Source: Chionis minor (lineage: Eukaryota > Chordata > Aves > Charadriiformes > Chionididae). From it: DNA of 64,000 nucleotides. The translations under genes were made by a program, and so were the position numbers. Positions 9,246 to 60,260 of this stretch are shown here, in pieces. The notes under the pieces were generated by a model. It saw only the letters and a program-made list of their open reading frames with translations. It made no database searches and was not told the DNA's origin. The stretch spans positions 184,734 to 248,733 of the forward strand of contig VZSF01000660.1 in NCBI GenBank assembly GCA_013398295.1, read 5' to 3'. Position 1 is the stretch's first letter. Every line of letters starts with the position of its first letter.

Positions 9246-10193
9246 GGAGTTTTATTTTTGTAGGGTTTTTTAATTATTATTTTGGTTTTTTTGTTGTTTT
9301 TGTTTGCTTGGGTTTTTTAGAAAATTGGGGATTTGTTCTTTTTTTTTCCTTTTTACAGACCTTCATGACAAAGCATAAAAACACAGTTATATTTATATAT
9401 CTATTTATATATTTCTTCATTTCGTCGGTTGGTTTGTAAATGTTGCTCCATCCTCCTGTCTGAGCTGATTGTGTGTCACAGAAATTGTGGGTGTGTGTGT
9501 GAGGTTCCTCCCAACTCTGGCCTGCAAAGTCACCACGCGTGGGGTGCAGCCAGCTATGGGGGAAGCCATGCTGGGGAGTGGGGATGAGGTGCACAGAGAA
9601 CCCCTCGCGGGGTGCAGATAGTTACTTGGTCCTTTTCTTCATTGCCAGGTCTCTGTACTGCCATCTCTGCTCTAGCCAGACTGTTCCCTCGGTCCCGGGA
9701 AACAGGGTGAGCATCAGAGGTGTTACTCGTGTTGAAGAGTCCACCACAGAAGAGCATATCTTTGGGGAACAGTGTTTCATGAGCGGCGTTCTCCCCTGCT
9801 TCCCCCGGCCCTTACCGCTCCCAGAAGGGGGTCCTGTATGGCAATGGTTGCCAGCTGCATCGCTTCCCCCTGAAGTCCTGGAAGCAGAGGGGACTTCGCG
9901 TGGCTGAGCTTTGCCCTGGCACAGTGGAGGGCTCCCGCAAGGAGAGGCCAGTTGGCCGCAGGCTCTTCCCGGCATGGGGGAGCAGTGGGGGCGGAGGGCA
10001 AGGGGAGGGTGGGGGGTCTCAGTCTCGAGTTGTGAGTGCTTGGTCCTTCGTGGCGAAGAGGAAGGAACTGGACTGCGGGGAGGAACGGAAGAAGGTCTCT
10101 TCACCCTTCCCAGGGATGGAGGGAGGTGATCAGACAGGTACAATGTGGAGGCCTAAGCTGTCGCCCTGCAGTTTCATGTGGTTTCCATGGTAA
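9246..10193 (-). other. PAX2: Probable PAX2 3' untranslated region
   Basis: The sequence after the stop codons shows no further convincing coding frame. On the gene strand it passes from GC-rich to strongly A/T-rich (9246-9440, several ATATAAATA and AAAACAACAAAA stretches). It ends at a candidate poly(A) signal at 9251-9256. The exact end is inferred. Mammalian PAX2 3' UTRs can be longer than the roughly 0.9 kb assigned here, so transcription may continue further toward lower coordinates. Confidence 0.6.
9251..9256 (-). terminator. PAX2: Candidate PAX2 polyadenylation signal AATAAA
   Basis: The plus strand reads TTTATT, which is AATAAA on the gene strand, about 0.94 kb after the main stop codon. 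About 45 to 100 nt further downstream the gene strand is T- and GT-rich (gggttttgtttcctttctgttttg between about 9145 and 9175). This is suitable for a downstream element, although the GC-rich stretch directly after the signal is less typical. Another TTTATT occurs at 5076-5081 but is far away. Confidence 0.5.
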
Positions 10194-10251
10194 CTAGTGG
10201 CGGTCATAGGCAGCGGCAGCAGTGGGAGGTGCGGAGCCCCGGGATGTGGCA
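10130..10251 (-). CDS. PAX2: PAX2 alternative C-terminus in an overlapping frame, ending LGLHIVPV
   Basis: A second acceptor (cttattattatag before 10251) lies 19 nt inside the terminal exon. Spliced to the A that ends the exon at 11614-11700, it makes an ATG codon and the frame (LLM)PHPGAPHLPLLPLPMTA, then TSYHGNHMKLQGDSLGLHIV and PV with stop TGA at 10130-10132. The frame is open for 39 codons past the junction and runs 64 nt beyond the first stop. Zebrafish and mammalian Pax2 isoforms with an LLM..PLPLLPLPMTATSY..LHIVPV tail are known, so this appears to be a conserved alternative end. It would replace the inhibitory YDRH tail. Confidence 0.88.
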
Positions 10252-10270
10252 CTATAATAATAAGGGGAAC
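10194..10270 (-). CDS. PAX2: PAX2 terminal coding exon, main frame ending AAAAYDRH
   Basis: With the upstream acceptor (gttaactttcag before 10270) the exon encodes (S)SPYYYSATSRGSAPPTAAAA, then YDRH and the stop TAG at 10194-10196. This is the standard C-terminus of PAX2/5/8 proteins and forms the inhibitory tail that tempers transactivation. The A-rich plus-strand tract at 10319-10378 is, on the gene strand, a very long pyrimidine tract about 50 to 110 nt upstream of this acceptor. The same bases are also read in a second frame (see the entry 10130-10251). Confidence 0.96.
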
Positions 10271-11613: not shown

Positions 11614-11700
11614 TTAGTAATGCAGGGTTGCTGAACCGCCAGGCCTCGTTGTAGGTTGTGTACTGAGGATGGCTGTAGGGGTTCCCTGAGAACTCGCTCC
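11614..11700 (-). CDS. PAX2: PAX2 exon: [13 protein letters not shown] segment (human exon 11 equivalent)
   Basis: This 87-nt exon encodes (G)[18 protein letters not shown], then [10 protein letters not shown], and ends with a single A. It belongs to the end of the transactivation domain before the inhibitory C-terminus. The acceptor is tgctttcttccag and the donor gtgagtac. The trailing A is used in two ways: with the acceptor before 10270 it forms AGT (Ser), and with the acceptor before 10251 it forms ATG (Met). In mammals an 83-nt alternative exon upstream can shift the frame of this exon; I did not find that exon in the intron at 11701-17616. Confidence 0.96.
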
Positions 11701-17616: not shown

Positions 17617-17718
17617 CAGGAACCATTCCTGCAAGAGTTGAGGTTGGGTAGCTGCCTTGTCCAGTTGGGGGAACATGGGGTGGGTAGCCAGGCAAGGTGG
17701 TGCTTGCCATATCACGAC
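17617..17718 (-). CDS. PAX2: PAX2 exon: [14 protein letters not shown] segment (human exon 9 equivalent)
   Basis: This 102-nt, phase 1-1 exon encodes (G)[18 protein letters not shown], then [15 protein letters not shown] and the first base of a glycine codon. It is part of the C-terminal transactivation region and one of the best conserved blocks among PAX2, PAX5 and PAX8. RDMAST and [10 protein letters not shown] match PAX2; the PAX5 counterpart reads RDLAST and differs in the second half. The acceptor is ttccctttgcag and the donor gtaagtca. It is preceded by the cassette exon at 21453-21662 and followed by a 5.9-kb intron. Confidence 0.97.
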
Positions 17719-20700: not shown

Positions 20701-21452
20701 TCCCCTCCAGCCTGCTGCTCCTAAGTGCTGCCATCTTCTGCAACCTGTTTCTTCCCTTCTGTCCTTCCCTTAAAGGCCACCTACCTCAGGTCTGTATTCC
20801 TTTGGCTGTAAGACATTATAGTCTCTCACCCACCCTTCCTGGTCTGGACATCCAGACGTGATGCCCTGTTTCTCAACCACTTGGTCTGCTGTGTAAAAGC
20901 ACCAGCTCGCATTGACACTCCCAAACCAGGTAGCTCAGATATTGCTCACAACATAGCTGTGGCAGTGCTCACCAGCTGCCTACGTACTTATCTAACTTAA
21001 TAGTTTGAGCAGCCCATGGTGGATGACCCAATCAGTCCTGGAGCTGGGCTGGGTTATTCCAGCTGCTATCGCCTGCCTCGGGTGAGCACGCAGTGCCCTT
21101 GCTGGGCCTACAGCACTCAGGGACAATATGAATGTTGAAGCAGCACAGGATTTTGCTGTAGGAGTGTTTCTAGACTAAGTCCCAGACCCATGCGACTGGG
21201 ACACCCAGTCACTTCTAGGTAGTTACAGCATCTTTTCCGATTTTATTCTACATAAGGAAGGACAGGCATGAAATCTGGTTGTGACTGTCCATGGAGTTGA
21301 GAACACACGCTGCATGCGCAGAATTGGAACGTGGTTGCTCTGGTTCCCACTTGCACTCAAAGAGCTTGCAGCATTTACTGGTTTCCCCGTCAGACGAAAC
21401 TGAACCCCTTGCCTGCAGCATCCCCACTGAGTTTGTGGCCAAGGCCGGTTAC
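17719..21452 (-). other. PAX2: PAX2 intron after the cassette exon
   Basis: This 3.7-kb sequence lies between the cassette exon and the RDMAST exon. It holds a MIR-like fragment at about 18080-18330 and an A-rich tract at 18670-18712. I see no coding segment. Confidence 0.75.
18080..18335 (+). repeat. MIR-like fragment, forward orientation
   Basis: The phrase ttaggcaagtcacttcacct followed by ctctgtgcttc is the typical MIR core text. It continues with actctttggtgcaagggcac and tttgcacagtgcttagca, a tail common in reptile copies. Confidence 0.55.
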
Positions 21453-21662
21453 CTGCTATCAGAGGCTGGCTGCTGGACTGCCCAAAGTGGGCACCATGAT
21501 GAAGGAAGGCACTGTAGCAAGGCGTGGACGCATCGTCTGAAAGGGCCATGTGGAAGGGCTGAAGATCAGCCTGCCCAGAGCCGACCGGCGTGGTGGGGGT
21601 GAAAGGGGTGAGAGAGGCTCCATGAGGCTCTTGCTTTATACTGAGGGGAGAGGAGAGGTTTT
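21453..21662 (-). CDS. PAX2: Probable extra PAX2 cassette exon related to the alternative exon of PAX8
   Basis: This 210-nt stretch lies in the PAX2 intron between the exons at 34083-34209 and 17617-17718. It has a pyrimidine-rich acceptor (tcccttaccctaccacag), a plausible donor (gcag|gtaacc), no stop in the gene frame, and is phase 1-1, so including or skipping it keeps the frame. It would encode (E)NLSSPLSIKQEPHGASLT, PFTPTTPVGSGQADLQPF, HMALSDDASTPCYSAFLHH and GAHFGQSSSQPLIAG, then join RDMAS. PAX8 has an alternatively spliced exon of about 63 residues at the same position with SPFAIKQE near its start and a GQ..LLSG-like end before its REM segment. The matching position, phase, IKQE motif and end make homology likely. 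It could add serine/threonine/proline-rich activation sequence. I do not know this exon from mammalian PAX2. Transcription is not shown by the sequence. Confidence 0.8.
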
Positions 21663-24600
21663 CTGTGGTAGGGTAAGGGATGGACACAGACAGACAAAGG
21701 GAACAGGGGGAGGAAGAGGAGGGTGGGGAAGGGAGGAGAGGAAGAACAAAATGGGTAAATGAAAATGGAGTGGTTAAAATCTACAGGGAAATTAATTTAA
21801 AAACAAAAATAAAAATAAAAAGGTTAGGAGTAGATCAGAGGAGCCAGTGCTGAGACAACAGCAGTAAATGCACCCGGGGGCTAGGCTCTGACTGCAGGGA
21901 TGCCTCTGCAGGGGCAGCAGGAGATGAGGAGAATGGAGTGCAGTGGCAGATGGGAGGAATGGGATGCAGGAAAAGGAGAGGTGAGGGAAGGAACATGCAG
22001 GAGAGGGAGGACAGGAAGAAGCGTAGGGCTGGGAAGGAGAAGAATGCTCTGAAGCTTCTGTGCTCCCTTTCCTGCTGCTTTCTCTCGCTGGCTGAGGGCG
22101 TGTGAAGATGCTACGCTTACACACTTTGGCCCAGGGAATTATACCACTTTGTCTCTTCAAACCCAAGGTAACCTTCCCCAGGAGAGCAGCAGGGATTATG
22201 AGCATCTGTTAAACAGGACGCTCGGTGTAATGGCCAAAGCCTCTCAAGCCAAACTCCATGAAAGCTTTGACAAAAAAGGTGTAGCTGAAGTTTGAGGTAG
22301 TTAAAATAAAGATGGGACCGTATAATTAATAGGTGGATAGACAGATCAATCAGTTGATCTTGTTCACAGTGGCACACTTTGGAGCTTTAACTATGAAAAC
22401 AGTCAGTACTGACTCTGGTTGTTCCCAGAGTACAGCGTTGCCAGGCAGATACCTTGACAGAGAGCTATAATGGAGGAGAGGAAATGGGGGGGACTTATAA
22501 AAGGTCTCATTTTCAATTGTTCTTTGTAGTGGACCTCCATTTCTGATGTGCACATTTGTACACCAGCTCCTAACTTGGCTGCCAAGTAAGAGGTTTGGGA
22601 ATTGGAGACCTCTGTGACCTAAAGCATGAGTACTCCAGAACACCCACTGTTGTTGGGTCAGCAGTAATAGAGTCCTGTATCTGAACACCTGAAAGAGAAG
22701 TATGGATGATGTGATCAGATGTGATCCAAATCATCTAGCAAGCCATCCACCCTCAGGTAAACAAATTAAAGCCAATAAATGAAAGCCATCTCTCTGCCGT
22801 GATAGCAAGTGTTGCCAATTGCCTAGGAAATAAGTTAGTTCTGGTGGTTTTGATTTATACAGAGAAATATAAATGTGACATATAATTAGGTCATAAATCT
22901 GACTTTGTTAATGTAGAACTGGCTTAATTAACTCCAGGCACCTTATTGTGAGGCTGCAATGCTCACCTAGACAATAAAGGGCTGGGCAGTTTCTATCCAT
23001 GAAGGCTGTTTATCCTGAGGCATTTGTTTCCTAAAGGTTTGCTACCTGGCAAAAATGATAGTTTGCCATCTGTGTTCTTCTCCAAGTACCTCTAACCTGG
23101 ACGGCCAGCAAAGGTCTCTGATCATTGAGACTCCTTTGCAGCAAAGACATATGTTCATGGTTTAGTTGATAGGGAAGGATCAGTCCTAGCCAAAAGGTGT
23201 ACAGTTCCTCTTTATTTAGTTTACTTATGTGAAGTCTCTGGTATGCTCAGTTAGGATTGTCATTTCTTCTCCCTTTTTGCTGTAGGAAGCTCCGTTTGGC
23301 AAGAACCTTTTGTGGAGGATATGGGGAACAGTAGCTGGAGTATCTGGTTCTCGCTGCAGTCAATTAGTGTCACCAAGAGTAGGCAGCACATCACTGCTCA
23401 GCTTCTGCTTTTTACAACTATACACTATCCTACAATCCTACCGGTGAGCCTTGACATGCTGGTGCCAGTCTCAGTAGATGGAGAATCCCCAAAGCTATTT
23501 TTTCTCTTGCATCCTCTATCATCAGATGGTAAGGACCGCACAGTTTTACCTTCAGGCCAGATAGGCAGAGTCACCACCAGCAGTTTGGGAGTGCTGAAGC
23601 CTTTATCCAAATAACGTTAATACTAGAGAATTTTGATAAATAGATCTATCTGCAGGCAGAGGGCCAAAAAGTTCCCCTTTTCAGGGGCTGCAAGTGAAGC
23701 GATATTTTTTCAAGGAAGCCATTTGACAGTCACACTTAAATAAGATGCTTAAATAAACTTGGGACATTTTGGTCCTGGGAATCTTCCAGGCTCCTTTTTC
23801 AGCTCTCCATACTGCGCAAGAGACAGCAGGTGTGGCGAACTGCTGGGGAAGAAAGGGCAGAGAAGAAGATGGGCACAGGAAGCATGAGTGGGCAGAAGCA
23901 AGACGTGCTATGGGCAGAGGTTAATCCTGTTTGCACAGCCCCCAGGCACATTGGGTTTCCTAGTCCCTCCCCTGCTTTATTTCTCTTTTAAAGCATGGAA
24001 TTTTCAGCTATAATCCTTCCTAAACCGCAGCATTTTTCAGGCACTCTGTGTAAGTGAAACCATAATCTCTGGTAAAACAGACCGCTTAAGCTGCTGTAGC
24101 ATTAGTCCAATCTGATCCAGCCCCTGGATTTCCGCTCTGCCCAGCCACCACGGAGAGGATTTTAGCCTGAAAGACTGTCTAAAACCTTTGCAATGGGAAC
24201 AACAGTGCTAGGCCTTGCCTTGCAAAGCTGAGAAGGGTTAAGGGACCAGGAGCTATTTGTCCCAGTGTTGTGAGGCTGTTAAAGCCCCTGTCAGACTCTC
24301 AGCGTAGATGAGCCCAGCCCTCCCTTGAACACATCAAGGCTTATGAAGAAAAATTCCTTGCACCTTACAGAGGCAGCACCACTTTCTCAGTGCAGGGGGA
24401 TAAAGAAGTCAACAGTAACATGGCAAAGAGACTGGGATACAATAATGCTAAACACTCTTCTCTCTCCGAGTAGTGGAGAGGCGAGGATAAGGTCAGACAG
24501 CGAATGATTGCACAACCAAAACTCAGACTTTTATGTGTCTATCTATCTATCTGTCTCTCTTTCCCTCTATGCTCCGAAACTGCACAGGTAGAACTTATAT

Positions 24601-26115: not shown

Positions 26116-27439
26116 ATGCAAAAGACCAAACTGGACTGACACAACATATCTTTCACTTTTGCTTTCTGTCATGTCAGAAGAACCACTTTTTCTTTCATTT
26201 TAGCTTTCTAGCTTGTCTTTTGCAAGAGCATTATGCAAGTTGCACTGAAGATAAAGATCAACCTATTTTTCTTCCCTCCTCTGTGATCATAACAGACCTT
26301 TGCCAGAACAACTGAAAAGTGTGCCAAGACTAATCTGCTTCTCGCTGTACCTTTCTTGTCTTCTCTTGCTATTTCTGCTGACTTGGAGAGTAAGCCTTGT
26401 GTGTTCAGGGTTATTTTCTGTTTCTGTACAGATCCATCCATGTTCTTAGCCCAATACTTTACTTGTGGGTTGTTGAAATACATGTTTAAAGAAACAACCC
26501 TGGATTGCTTTCTCCTGAGAGTCAAAACTTGTGACATCACTGATGTCAAGTGTTGAAATCTATTTGCAACATTTTTTTATAAAACTGAATTTTATAAATC
26601 TAGATTTTGTGTCTGTTGCTGTCAAAGTAAACTGACCTGCTAACTCTTTGTTACTTTAGAGAGAAAAAGTTTTATAGTCTTCGTACAGAGTAAAACCTGG
26701 ATCTTCCAGTAGACCTGCAATCTGGACTTACTCTTTGAAGCTAGTTGAGTACTGTTAGTGTTAATTACTTGAGAACCCCACTGAAGTCAACTTCATGTGG
26801 CTCTAAGTGCATTTGTCTGCAGACGAAGCTGATGAAGGAGGAAGTGTTTTAAAGTTGGGGGGGGAGGGGGGAGAAAAGACGTGCTACTTGTGCACTTGGC
26901 AAACAGGGAAGTTCAGTGGAGTTTGTAGTCTTGTGCCCTTTCTGGAGTCCCAGCCCACCAGGTTGGGCAATTACTCCCTGCCTTAAAAGTGTAACGTATG
27001 TTTATTCCTTGGTGGGTTGGGACTTGAATGTTCTCTCCTAAACAACATGCTTTTGAAATATATACTGGGAAACATAATTAGAACATGATAGTTTTTCATG
27101 CAGTCCTCATTAGAAGTATCTCCAAGGTTTCATCACAATGATATTCTACTGATCATAAGACAGGACAGATCTTCCTGGGTAGCCCACAGCAACCCTAAAC
27201 CTGCAAAGGGCCAAAGATTTCCATCAGCTCCCCATTTCGCTGATTGACTGCAGTGGCAATTTCAATTGTACAAGCAGCTGGCCTGGTTAAATCCAGTACA
27301 GCTGATGGAGATCAAAAGTTATTAACACCCGCTGACAGGTGTTGCTTAACTCACATATAAAGGGCAGTCTTTGCTGTCAGTGGGCAAATATCTACATCAC
27401 AAAAATTTTCATCATAGCCATACTTACTGGATCCTTCCA

Positions 27440-27466
27440 TTTTGAAGGATCCTTCATCCTTCAAAA
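27440..27466. repeat. Perfect 11-bp inverted repeat with 5-bp loop
   Basis: The arm ttttgaaggat at 27440-27450 is followed by ccttc and then its reverse complement atccttcaaaa. A further atccttcc copy lies just before it at 27431. Confidence 0.9.
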
Positions 27467-28708
27467 GAAAAGGCAAAGCCTGAATTGTGGGGAAGTCAAT
27501 ATAATTATTTTTTCTAAAAAGTCCCTTTCAGTGTGGCAGCCTGCAATGCTGTCCCCTTGCCGAGGGGAATAGGACTGGGAATGCCAGTTCACTGCTGTTG
27601 TCATTACATGACATTAATGCATTCACTGCTATTGTTCACTTAAATGCTAATTTAAGGAAGGTGAAGACATTATTTCTTTCAGACCCATCCATTTCTGGGT
27701 TCTTCACTTCAATGTGCCTTTCAAGCCCATAAGCCACCTTCTTCAGCATCATAAAGTTATTCTCAGTGAAACTTCCATTGGATGCATGGAATTAGCTTAT
27801 GTGATTCCTTTCCCCCCACGCTATTCGTGTCCGTTCCAGGGATCATTCATCTGACCATCTATCACCCTCGGCCATTTGGTCCTGGCAAAGAGTAGTAACA
27901 CCTTTTGCCTTTCCAAATTCCTTGACTAGATAAGAAGATATTATCTCTTCTTAGGGATGGGAAACAGTTGATGGAATTTGGAGGTTCTGTGGGCTTCTAC
28001 TTTTGTTGATTCCTAATCTTAAATAGAGGATAGGCTTCCTTACAGAAAATACCTCCTTAATTTTGATGGGGCAGGATAGTAACAACCTTGTAGCAGCCAC
28101 ATGAATGATAATCGTATTTGATTTTCAGGGCATTGGGGCATCCAGAGATGCGCCCGAAAGGCTGCCTGTCTGCCGGCAGCCGCAGCCGCGATGCTGTGCC
28201 GCAGAGTGCAGCTCTGCCTCTGTCGGATTTGCTGTCACCAAAGCCAGTCTGGGACCCCTCGCAGTTTGTTAAAGAGATTTTCTTAAGTCAGCGCAGTCAA
28301 GCCCTGACCAGGGCCGTTGCTCACTGGTGGCAGAGGCTAAAGCAGACTGGAGCAAGACAGGAAATCTTCACCAGTGCAAACAAGGAGAAAGGGAAGGAAA
28401 TGCTCCCCCTCTCAGCATAATGATATAAGTACAACTGAATGTAACGGTCAGTTTTAATCATGGTCTAAAACAGCAAGCTGAATCAACTGGTTTTACATTT
28501 GCACTATGAGGCTGTTTTCTAAAAGGTTGACTTTTATGGGTGGTAACAAATATTTTGACAAATACAAAATTTATGCTACACATGGTTATTTCAATTTTTG
28601 CTAAGTAGATGAACTGCATCTGTGCACATTTATTTAAGCAATTATGTTGTTTAATGTAATTTGTCTTTACATGTTATTATACGACAAAATAGTGAACGAT
28701 GAGTCCAT

Positions 28709-31805: not shown

Positions 31806-34082
31806 TTATCTGAAGTCCTTTCTTGGGTAATGGCACCATTAATCCAAATGTTGGATCCTGGCCTAAGCGTAGAGGAAAAATTCGCCACCCCTCTTCCCCT
31901 GCTGCCTTTCAGGGTGTTGAGAGTTTTTTTTTTCCTTTTCATTTCCAGTTTCTGAGTTTCCCCATCATTACCACCAGAGAACAACTCCCAACGCTAATAG
32001 TTCTGCTTTTGTTACTCTGCGCTGATTGAAATGTCGCATACAGATTGAGATGTTAGGGCTAAGTTGCCACCTGGGAATGTCAAGCTGGGTCTGAAATGAA
32101 CTTTTCTCACTCTTGGATCCAGATGGATCAGATGGGGATGTTCTCGAGCTGAGCTGGGAGCATTGCAGAGAACAGAGTGGGGATGGCACAGGGTTGCGGG
32201 GACATGAAGATTTTCTGCCTCAGCCAACAGCTTCTTCTGTGACGCCAAATCTGTCCCCTATTGTCCCCCTGTGAGAGTCATGTCCAAAGCTTGTGCAGTG
32301 TATCCAGCCTTCAGGAATTCTGCTCTCATATTAACAGGCTGGAATGCACCATCTTCACTTAGGCAGAAGCACTAAAAAGAATTATTTTAATGGCTGCTTT
32401 GAATATTAAACTCTGATTTTAGGCATCTCACCTTTAAGGCCAGCTATGGGGATTTGCCTTCCATGAAGGAAGGACAGTACTGCTTTCCTACTGGTTTTGC
32501 CCCCCAAAGACAGGAAAGTGCTTCCTGGAAGAGGTGTAGATTTTCTAAATGGTAGATGGACACCAGCTGAGTATTGTCTTGCATGCATAAATACAAAAAA
32601 AGGTGGAACAATTTTGCCATAGCTGAGCCATTTTTTTTACAGCTGGCTAAGAAACTGCATGGTTACAAGGATCCTGGATCAAGCCTGATAGCAATAAAAG
32701 CCATGAAAAAACTCTGGGTATGTCACACTTTCTAGACACTCCCTAAATATGCAGTTTACCTCCTCATGGTTCTCCATGACATTTCACAGACCTCACACTG
32801 TATCCCCTCTGTATTTGGGGTAACTGTTAGTAATCCTGCCTGGTCCCAAAGCTCCTGGTAGCCAAAAGCTGCATGCAACAATATGCCTTTGCTCAGTGTT
32901 TGCTGAACAGGCAATGACCGCCTGCCTCAGCCATGAGCTCCGCTGACCTCAGGGGCTGGGGCTTCTGCAAGAAAACACGGTGATACAAACTCCAGTGCTC
33001 GCGATTCTCTGCCACCAGAGGACAGCGCTTTGGCCAAGAGGCAACAGCTCCTTCCCTTGCTAACAGGACTGACACCTCTTTGTCAGGAGTTATGTCTCAG
33101 CTTACACCACAGGGTTTCTAGAGGGACCGCAGCAGTTGTAGGGCAAGGGGTGGGACATACTAAACAGGGGTGAATCGCTTGGGCCTTGTCAGCTGCTCTA
33201 GCAACCCCAGAGGAGATGTGCAAATCTATGGTAGCTGTGTGAGCTGGAAGCAGTGGCAACTGAAGCCTGAGAAGATGAGCCGTGGCACCAGAATATCTCC
33301 TCATGGCTCTAGACACGCAGAGGGCAGGCAGTCTAACACTTGTATCAGATGGTGTGCCCTGTGGCCCCAGGACAGCCCTGTGCCACTCAGGTCCTGCACG
33401 TGCCACCAGCAAAGAGGAAGTCTCTGTGTAGCAGCTGCTGCAGAAATTGCCTCCTACTCCTGCGCATCCTGATTCCTCTACTGTCTTGCCCTTGTTCTTA
33501 TTTCCTACTCTCCCAGTCACACCTGAGTTTAATGTGCCCACACGTGAGGCAAGGGGGGAAGCTGTGAACATATTTCTTTTGCCAGCTGCCAGCCACTCAT
33601 GGGCTTAAGGAAGAGGGAGTTTAGCAGTCACAGTTCAGCAGACCTCAGTATGTAGTTTGCAAATGCCCCTTCCAAATGCCAGGACTGAATAAAACTTAAA
33701 TTATTAATTCTCCCTGAGAAAACCGAGTGCAGATCATGGGTAAGCAACGACCCTCTTGTTCTCAGACACAAAGGAAAAATCACCGTGCGTATTTGGACAT
33801 ACCTGTCCTCCACCAACACCCATCCCTAAGCCCCATCTGGGCACACAAGTTCCTGACTTACACCTGTGTCTCTCTGTCTTTGAGTCACACCTGGGTACCT
33901 CTAGGTGTACCCAAAGCTGCCAATACTCTGAATTTCAAGCTTCTCTGGAGCCCTTATGTCCTCCACAGTCTTTCTCTCTCTTTCCATGAGGGATATCTTG
34001 CATTAGCAGAAAAAGCAGAAGCTAATGGTGATGAGGGAAATAAATAAAAAGCTTGGTTCTGCTGTTTGGTCAGGCAGCTTAC

Positions 34083-34209
34083 CGGTAACCACAGGGTACG
34101 TCTGGGGTCCTGACACATTTGTCCCCAGGTCTGGGTTAGCAGAGGTGGATAGACTTGATTTGACTTCATCGAGACCAGGGGTCAGAGCTGGGAGGGAGTA
34201 CTCATTACC
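34083..34209 (-). CDS. PAX2: PAX2 exon: start of the transactivation region (human exon 8 equivalent)
   Basis: This 127-nt exon encodes [40 protein letters not shown] and VT plus the first base of a glycine codon. The segment is diagnostic for PAX2; PAX5 and PAX8 differ strongly here. It belongs to the C-terminal proline-, serine- and threonine-rich transactivation region. The acceptor (ctcctctcttccccag) and donor (gtaagctg) are strong. Because it ends in phase 1 it can splice either to the exon at 17617-17718, giving VVTG-RDMAS, or to the extra exon at 21453-21662, giving VVTE-NLSS. Confidence 0.97.
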
Positions 34210-36263
<2,054 letters not shown>

Positions 36264-57981: not shown

Positions 57982-58101
57982 CTTCATCACGTTTCCTCTT
58001 CTCGCCATTCGACCGAGGAATCCCCAGGATCCCGTTAATGGAGTAAGAGCCCACTGGATCATTGGAGGCACTGGAGACGGGAGGGGATGCTGTGCTGGGC
58101 A
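57982..58101 (-). CDS. PAX2: PAX2 exon: octapeptide exon (human exon 5 equivalent)
   Basis: This 120-nt exon reads (V)[17 protein letters not shown] and then the octapeptide YSINGILG (58022-58045), followed by [13 protein letters not shown]. In PAX2/5/8 proteins the octapeptide recruits Groucho/TLE corepressors; the basic KRKR stretch may contribute to nuclear localisation. The acceptor is ccttttgtccag and the donor is gtaggggg, which lacks a consensus A at +4. The last base (g) joins the exon at 36042-36217 to give KRKRDE-DVSEG, with no intervening alternative exon. It is the first coding exon downstream of a 2.0-kb intron and precedes the largest intron in the window, about 21.8 kb. Confidence 0.97.

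Positions 58102-60260
<2,159 letters not shown>

What the first reader, a model, noticed from the sequence alone, without database searches (positions are those of the whole stretch)
21453..21662. A PAX8-like cassette exon inside PAX2
The sequence shows a 210-nt, stop-free, phase 1-1 segment with a good acceptor and plausible donor on the gene strand, between the two exons where PAX8 has its alternatively spliced serine-rich exon. SPLSIKQE here matches SPFAIKQE there, and both end in a hydrophobic-A/S-G before the R-D/E-M exon. This suggests that the common Pax2/5/8 ancestor had this exon, that PAX2 kept it in this lineage, and that mammalian PAX2 (as I know it) lost it. It would give a PAX2 isoform with 70 extra residues in the activation region.
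Basis: partly seen in the sequence, partly recalled or inferred. Interest (0 to 1): 0.88.

Follow-up and report, generated by a model that had tools for sequence, protein, structure and literature searches.

The report
Real extra PAX2 exon, PAX8-like
The stretch is a genuine optional coding exon of the bird developmental gene PAX2, related to an optional exon of its sister gene PAX8; public databases already list it for birds, crocodilians, amphibians and fish, and its most constant feature is a single lysine in a likely SUMO-attachment site.

Summary
Window 21662..21453 (minus strand) is a 210-nt, phase 1-1, open exon in a 16.4-kb intron of a bird PAX2 gene. It is already in the databases: a search with its translation returned 96 records (full clean matches: birds 95-100% identical, crocodilians 88%, frogs 68-72%, salamanders 64%, sturgeon 63%, teleosts 59-64%), and a second search added gar, bichir, coelacanth, eel and others. 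One record bears a UniProt 'Isoform 2' name for Xenopus. The likeness to the PAX8 exon is homology: in 28 of 28 sequence pairs none of 1000 shuffles reached the score, and profiles align over 63 columns (E 2.2e-10). So the exon predates the PAX2/PAX8 split. No mammal was named among the PAX2-type records, which fits loss in mammals, but no such genome could be searched. My mechanism: the exon adds a SUMO-acceptor module. Its lysine, nearly always the only one, lies in psi-K-x-E in 121 of 121 PAX2-type records, and KQE is the only invariant triplet in 13 aligned PAX2 and PAX8 exons. Consensus and conservation are shown; SUMO attachment to PAX2 and its effect are inferred. The exon is known; the module idea is testable.

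The parts
21453..21662 (-). Cassette exon of PAX2, 210 nt, phase 1-1, adds 70 residues
   Evidence: Open spliced frame and splice sites; homologues in 121 PAX2-type records
21628..21639 (-). Codons for I-K-Q-E, the psi-K-x-E core with the only lysine of the window's cassette
   Evidence: Sequence; core present in 121 of 121 PAX2-type and 38 of 39 PAX8 records
34083..34209 (-). Upstream PAX2 exon ending ...TYPVVT-G, phase 1 donor
17617..17718 (-). Downstream PAX2 exon beginning [12 protein letters not shown]
36042..36217 (-). PAX2 exon DVSEGS...TSEHIKSEQ, carrying a second psi-K-x-E (IKSE, 36056..36045)
57982..58101 (-). PAX2 exon with VPSTASPP...YSINGILG...KRKRDE
60146..60231 (-). PAX2 exon with [17 protein letters not shown]...GHTI
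11614..11700 (-). PAX2 exon [14 protein letters not shown]...NPALL
10194..10270 (-). Last coding PAX2 exon SSPYYYSATSRG...AAYDRH-stop

Best explanation
The segment is a genuine optional coding exon of PAX2, inherited from a gene that existed before PAX2 and PAX8 separated; PAX8 keeps the same exon. Inclusion inserts 70 residues of lysine-poor, S/T/P-rich sequence into the C-terminal regulatory region without changing the frame. Most likely mechanism: the exon is a plug-in SUMO-acceptor module. Its lysine sits in an invariant psi-K-x-E core, so including or skipping the exon adds or removes a SUMO site that restrains synergy or stabilises the factor. Shown: the exon, its homologues, the consensus and its conservation. 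Inferred: actual SUMO attachment in PAX2, its effect, and regulated inclusion in birds. My split: real exon 0.97; homologous to the PAX8 exon 0.93; SUMO module as main function about 0.45.
For: Homologous cassettes at the same protein position in 121 PAX2-type records from birds to bichir. Of the 46 bird records P0001-P0046, 34 hold the window's cassette letter for letter. PAX2 against PAX8: 28 of 28 pairs with 0 of 1000 shuffles reaching the score; profile E 2.2e-10 over 63 columns. psi-K-x-E: 121 of 121 PAX2-type records (120 KQEP, one KREP) and 38 of 39 PAX8 records, whose only [VILMF]KxE motif it is. One lysine in 110 of the 112 PAX2-type and 36 of the 36 PAX8 cassettes that could be cut out (of 121 and 39). 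KQE is the only run of three invariant columns in 13 aligned cassettes; shuffles give psi-K-x-E in 131 and 152 of 20,000. A paper passage says that Pax8 stability falls when its sumoylation is prevented (PMC3485284); the site, K309, is my recall.
Against: No RNA evidence was examined for birds; most records are predicted isoforms. The cassette evolves faster than its neighbours: crocodilian 85% against 98-100%, zebrafish 51% against 71-97%. Other blocks are conserved too (PFTP, DASTP, SQPLIAG). psi-K-x-E is a common motif and no SUMO assay on PAX2 was found. The flanking prolines of the classical synergy-control motif (recalled) are incomplete in frog, axolotl, gar, bichir, sturgeon and zebrafish. 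The shared lysine could instead serve ubiquitin or acetylation.
Confidence: 0.55

Rival explanations
1. A real, conserved, optional exon that tunes transactivation as an activation or spacer segment (S/T/P-rich, with S/T-P sites and tyrosines), without SUMO being the point.
For: Several conserved blocks besides KQE; the listed title of Kozmik 1993 says that Pax-8 splice isoforms differ in transactivation (reference list seen; paper not held).
Against: KQE is the only triplet invariant across both genes, on a nearly always single lysine.
Confidence: 0.35
2. The segment is conserved as regulatory DNA inside the intron and is seldom or never used as an exon; database models merely project it.
For: Many records are automatic predictions; synonymous sites could not be compared here.
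Against: Conserved as protein with intact frame and both junctions from bichir to bird; a UniProt isoform name and a non-RefSeq Xenopus protein carry it (P0080, P0096); homologous to an exon used in PAX8 proteins.
Confidence: 0.03
3. The PAX2 and PAX8 exons arose independently or by later exchange, and the resemblance is convergent.
For: PAX5-named records did not appear, so inheritance through the three-gene ancestor is not shown from that side.
Against: Same place, same ends and colinear similarity over nearly the whole exon; already in bichir, sturgeon, gar and coelacanth PAX2.
Confidence: 0.04
4. A chance open frame with chance splice-like ends.
For: 102 open phase 1-1 AG..GT intervals of 200-600 nt exist in this intron when splice quality is ignored.
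Against: Homologues; only the cassette passes both splice cut-offs.
Confidence: 0.01

Closest known systems
PAX2 long isoforms in public databases (for example Xenopus laevis Pax-2-B 'Isoform 2', alligator isoform X2, zebrafish Pax-2a isoforms)
   Same: Same exon, same place, same frame: 69% (Xenopus P0054), 88% (alligator P0049) of the searched region identical to the window
   Different: The window's copy is the bird form, identical to many bird records; nothing distinguishes it as a new kind
Optional C-terminal exon of PAX8 (63 residues in human PAX8 as recalled)
   Same: Same place between ...YPVV and GR(D/E)M, same psi-KQE core, STPSSL-like block and YGQ..(G/S)Q.L..G end
   Different: About 35% identical; PAX8 copy shorter and more serine-rich, and its KQE is the only [VILMF]KxE motif of PAX8 records, whereas PAX2 has another in a flanking exon. 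That the PAX8 exon is skipped in some isoforms is recalled
SUMO-acceptor / synergy-control sites of transcription factors (glucocorticoid and progesterone receptors)
   Same: psi-K-x-E core in a transcription factor's regulatory region (passages of PMC3373386)
   Different: Here the site lies on an exon that can be left out; modification of PAX2 there is untested and the flanking prolines vary

Membership tests
PAX2 coding exon | Lies between PAX2 exons on the gene strand and keeps the frame | tested here: met
   Exon model and joined translation, Pfam Pax2_C E 5.8e-56, tblastn of PAX2 proteins
PAX2 coding exon | Present in PAX2 proteins of other species | tested here: met
   96 and 61 records, 121 distinct PAX2-type records together
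PAX2 coding exon | Transcribed and spliced in this species | not testable with these tools
   No RNA data held
PAX8 optional C-terminal exon (homologue) | Same position in the protein | tested here: met
   YPVV...G(R)(D/E)M frame in both
PAX8 optional C-terminal exon (homologue) | Sequence similarity beyond chance | tested here: met
   28 of 28 pairs, 0 of 1000 shuffles each; profile E 2.2e-10
PAX8 optional C-terminal exon (homologue) | Same intron phase in the PAX8 gene | not tested
   Only PAX8 proteins were seen, no PAX8 genomic DNA
PAX8 optional C-terminal exon (homologue) | Exon present in the PAX5 branch or in invertebrate Pax2/5/8 | not tested
SUMO-acceptor site | psi-K-x-E core, conserved | tested here: met
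   121 of 121 PAX2-type, 38 of 39 PAX8 records
SUMO-acceptor site | Lysine carries SUMO in cells | not testable with these tools
   Needs a conjugation assay
Synergy-control motif (definition with prolines recalled) | Proline shortly before and after the psi-K-x-E core | tested here: inconclusive
   Both prolines in bird, crocodilian and coelacanth PAX2 and in PAX8; upstream proline missing in frog, axolotl, gar, bichir, sturgeon and zebrafish

The most novel reading that the evidence does not exclude
The gene ancestral to PAX2 and PAX8 carried an optional exon acting as a removable SUMO module, so that splicing decided whether the factor could be restrained at promoters with several binding sites. 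PAX8 depends on it for its only such site; bird, frog and fish PAX2 have it beside a constitutive site; mammalian PAX2 lost the exon and with it the splice-controlled switch.
Probability: 0.3. Interest if true: 0.6.

Novelty: already known. Interest (0 to 1): 0.4.

Why it matters
PAX2 controls kidney, eye and ear development, and much functional work rests on mammalian PAX2, which appears to lack this exon. If the exon is a splice-controlled SUMO site shared with PAX8, frog, fish or chick PAX2 may behave differently from mouse PAX2 for a definable reason, and the overlap between PAX2 and PAX8 becomes testable at one residue.

Tried and rejected
Rejected: a chance open frame (and the homologues). 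Rejected for direct joining to 34083: the inner acceptor whose AG is 21642-21641, since entry there in phase 1 meets TAA at once (sequence); two database models (P0051, P0052) do start their cassette there, after other exons. Conservation as regulatory DNA only, convergence and chance are kept as minor rivals.

Could not be done: dN/dS (no DNA of relatives), RNA junctions, mammalian, turtle, squamate or shark genomes, PAX5 and amphioxus. Cluster members behind a representative's name are not shown, so 'no mammal, turtle, squamate or shark' means no record so named. No structure prediction was run.

Literature: ten searches, seen as listings, in a library that lacks most subscription journals. 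I saw no listed paper on this exon's PAX8 homology or its loss in mammals, but the papers most likely to treat it were not held (de Cristofaro 2009, Heller and Brandli 1997, Kozmik 1993, Short 2012), so I make no claim that it is unpublished. Read: PMC4488758 parts 1-3 of 7 plus passages (its Figure 1 is not held and may draw this exon); passages only of PMC3288081, PMC2532684, PMC10931086, PMC3485284, PMC9266416, PMC3373386, PMC9456430 (nothing on PAX5 sumoylation there).

Full report
What is there. The window holds a 3' part of a PAX2 gene on the minus strand. Exons read from the sequence are 60231..60146, 58101..57982, 36217..36042, 34209..34083, 21662..21453, 17718..17617, 11700..11614 and 10270..10194, each also matched by tblastn of database PAX2 proteins. 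Joined, they give 327 residues whose end matches Pfam Pax2_C with E 5.8e-56; that match begins at residue 215, inside the cassette. The cassette is 210 nt, entered and left in phase 1, so including or skipping it keeps the frame.

Is it more than chance? Open frame and phase alone are cheap: 102 phase 1-1 open AG..GT intervals of 200-600 nt exist in the 16,364-nt intron. With both splice sites at least as good as the cassette's, only the cassette remains, and 20 of 20 resampled introns had none (matrices recalled, cut-offs set at the cassette's own scores). Its acceptor score (6.2) equals the lowest of the six other exons scored and its donor (3.3) is second lowest of seven; weak sites fit an optional exon (inference).

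Relatives. A search using only the cassette part and its edges found 96 records among 106 candidates. Full clean matches are 95-100% identical in birds, 88% in crocodilians, 68-72% in frogs, 64% in salamanders, 63% in sturgeon and 59-64% in teleosts. Two lower ones, P0086 (a parrot, 66%) and P0096 (Xenopus, 46%), look frameshifted in the middle of the cassette (my reading). P0080 bears the UniProt name 'Isoform 2 of Paired box protein P...' (cut off in the listing). A search with the sturgeon cassette found 61 records among 79 candidates, 25 of them new, adding gar, bichir, coelacanth, eel, arowana, zebrafish and others. Together there are 121 PAX2-type records. Of the 46 bird records P0001-P0046, 34 contain the window's cassette letter for letter. 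The window is therefore most likely from a bird, and the exon is already in public annotation.

PAX8. A search with the human PAX8 cassette (letters recalled) returned 39 records among 177 candidates: mostly mammals, a tuatara, a turtle, and nine unnamed contig records. Seven PAX2 and four PAX8 cassettes compared pairwise scored 74-125 against shuffle means of 28-31; in 28 of 28 pairs none of 1000 shuffles reached the score. Profiles of seven and six sequences align over 63 columns with E 2.2e-10. The place in the protein agrees. The exon therefore goes back to before the PAX2/PAX8 split. The PAX8 intron phase and the PAX5 branch were not tested.

Loss in mammals. No mammal-named record is among the 121, although mammals dominate the PAX8 result. 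This fits loss or decay of the exon in mammalian PAX2. It is annotation-level evidence only. Turtles, squamates, sharks and spiny-rayed fish are also missing by name, and clusters hide their members.

Conservation. The cassette changes faster than its neighbours: alligator 85% against 98-100% in the other exons, zebrafish 51% against 71-97%; in Xenopus 65% against 83-100%, leaving out the last exon, which shows 16% there, probably because a different reading frame is used (my reading). It is nonetheless far from free: 34 of 46 bird records identical, and 30 of 71 columns invariant in seven sequences from goldfish to bird.

Mechanism. The cassette has one lysine in 110 of the 112 PAX2-type cassettes and in 36 of the 36 PAX8 cassettes that my end pattern could cut out of 121 and 39 records; the nine and three others were dropped by the pattern, not by their lysines. 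The lysine lies in psi-K-x-E in 121 of 121 PAX2-type records: 120 with KQEP and the sardine P0155 with KREP. It does so in 38 of 39 PAX8 records; the rabbit model P0135 lacks that part. In 13 aligned PAX2 and PAX8 cassettes KQE is the only run of three invariant columns, and shuffled bird and mammal cassettes show psi-K-x-E in 131 and 152 of 20,000 tries. The PAX8 records hold no other [VILMF]KxE motif, while PAX2 records commonly hold a second one, IKSE or IKPE; in the window it is IKSE in exon 36217..36042. A passage in PMC3485284 says Pax8 stability falls when its sumoylation is prevented; that the site is K309 is recalled, and in my recalled human PAX8 the only such motif is at K308, in this exon. 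Passages of PMC3373386 describe SUMO sites of this form limiting synergy in steroid receptors. I therefore propose that inclusion adds a removable SUMO site. Conjugation of PAX2, its effect and its tissue control are inferred.

Against. The faster evolution, the other conserved blocks, the incomplete proline flanks in frogs, axolotl and most fish compared, and the commonness of psi-K-x-E all leave a plain activation or spacer role open (0.35).

Verdict. Observation confirmed. The exon is already known to databases; the SUMO-module reading is the part worth testing.

Noticed in passing
21223-21452 (-): The cassette's open frame runs on past its donor to a stop at about 21223; two duck (Oxyura) records (P0042, P0046) use this read-through as an alternative protein end.
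   Followed up: partly
10133-10258 (-): The last exon has a second open frame (MPHPGAPHLPLLPLPM...GLHIVPV) used as another C-terminus in bird and frog records (P0008, P0051, P0067).
   Followed up: partly
32433-32525 (-): A stretch of the same intron, 68% identical as protein, is used as an extra exon before the cassette in a ptarmigan record (P0045); may be an exon or gene-model noise.
   Followed up: no
23023-23207, 22585-22695, 27378-27485 (-): Further intron stretches resemble extra exons of single bird models (Amazona P0043, Pluvialis P0051, Lonchura P0052); probably model noise over conserved intron DNA.
   Followed up: no
36045-36056 (-): A constitutive PAX2 exon carries a second psi-K-x-E motif, IKSE, which PAX8 records lack.
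   Followed up: partly
salamander records P0089 and P0092 (not in window): Both have about 38 extra residues between the upstream exon and the cassette, suggesting a salamander-specific exon.
   Followed up: no
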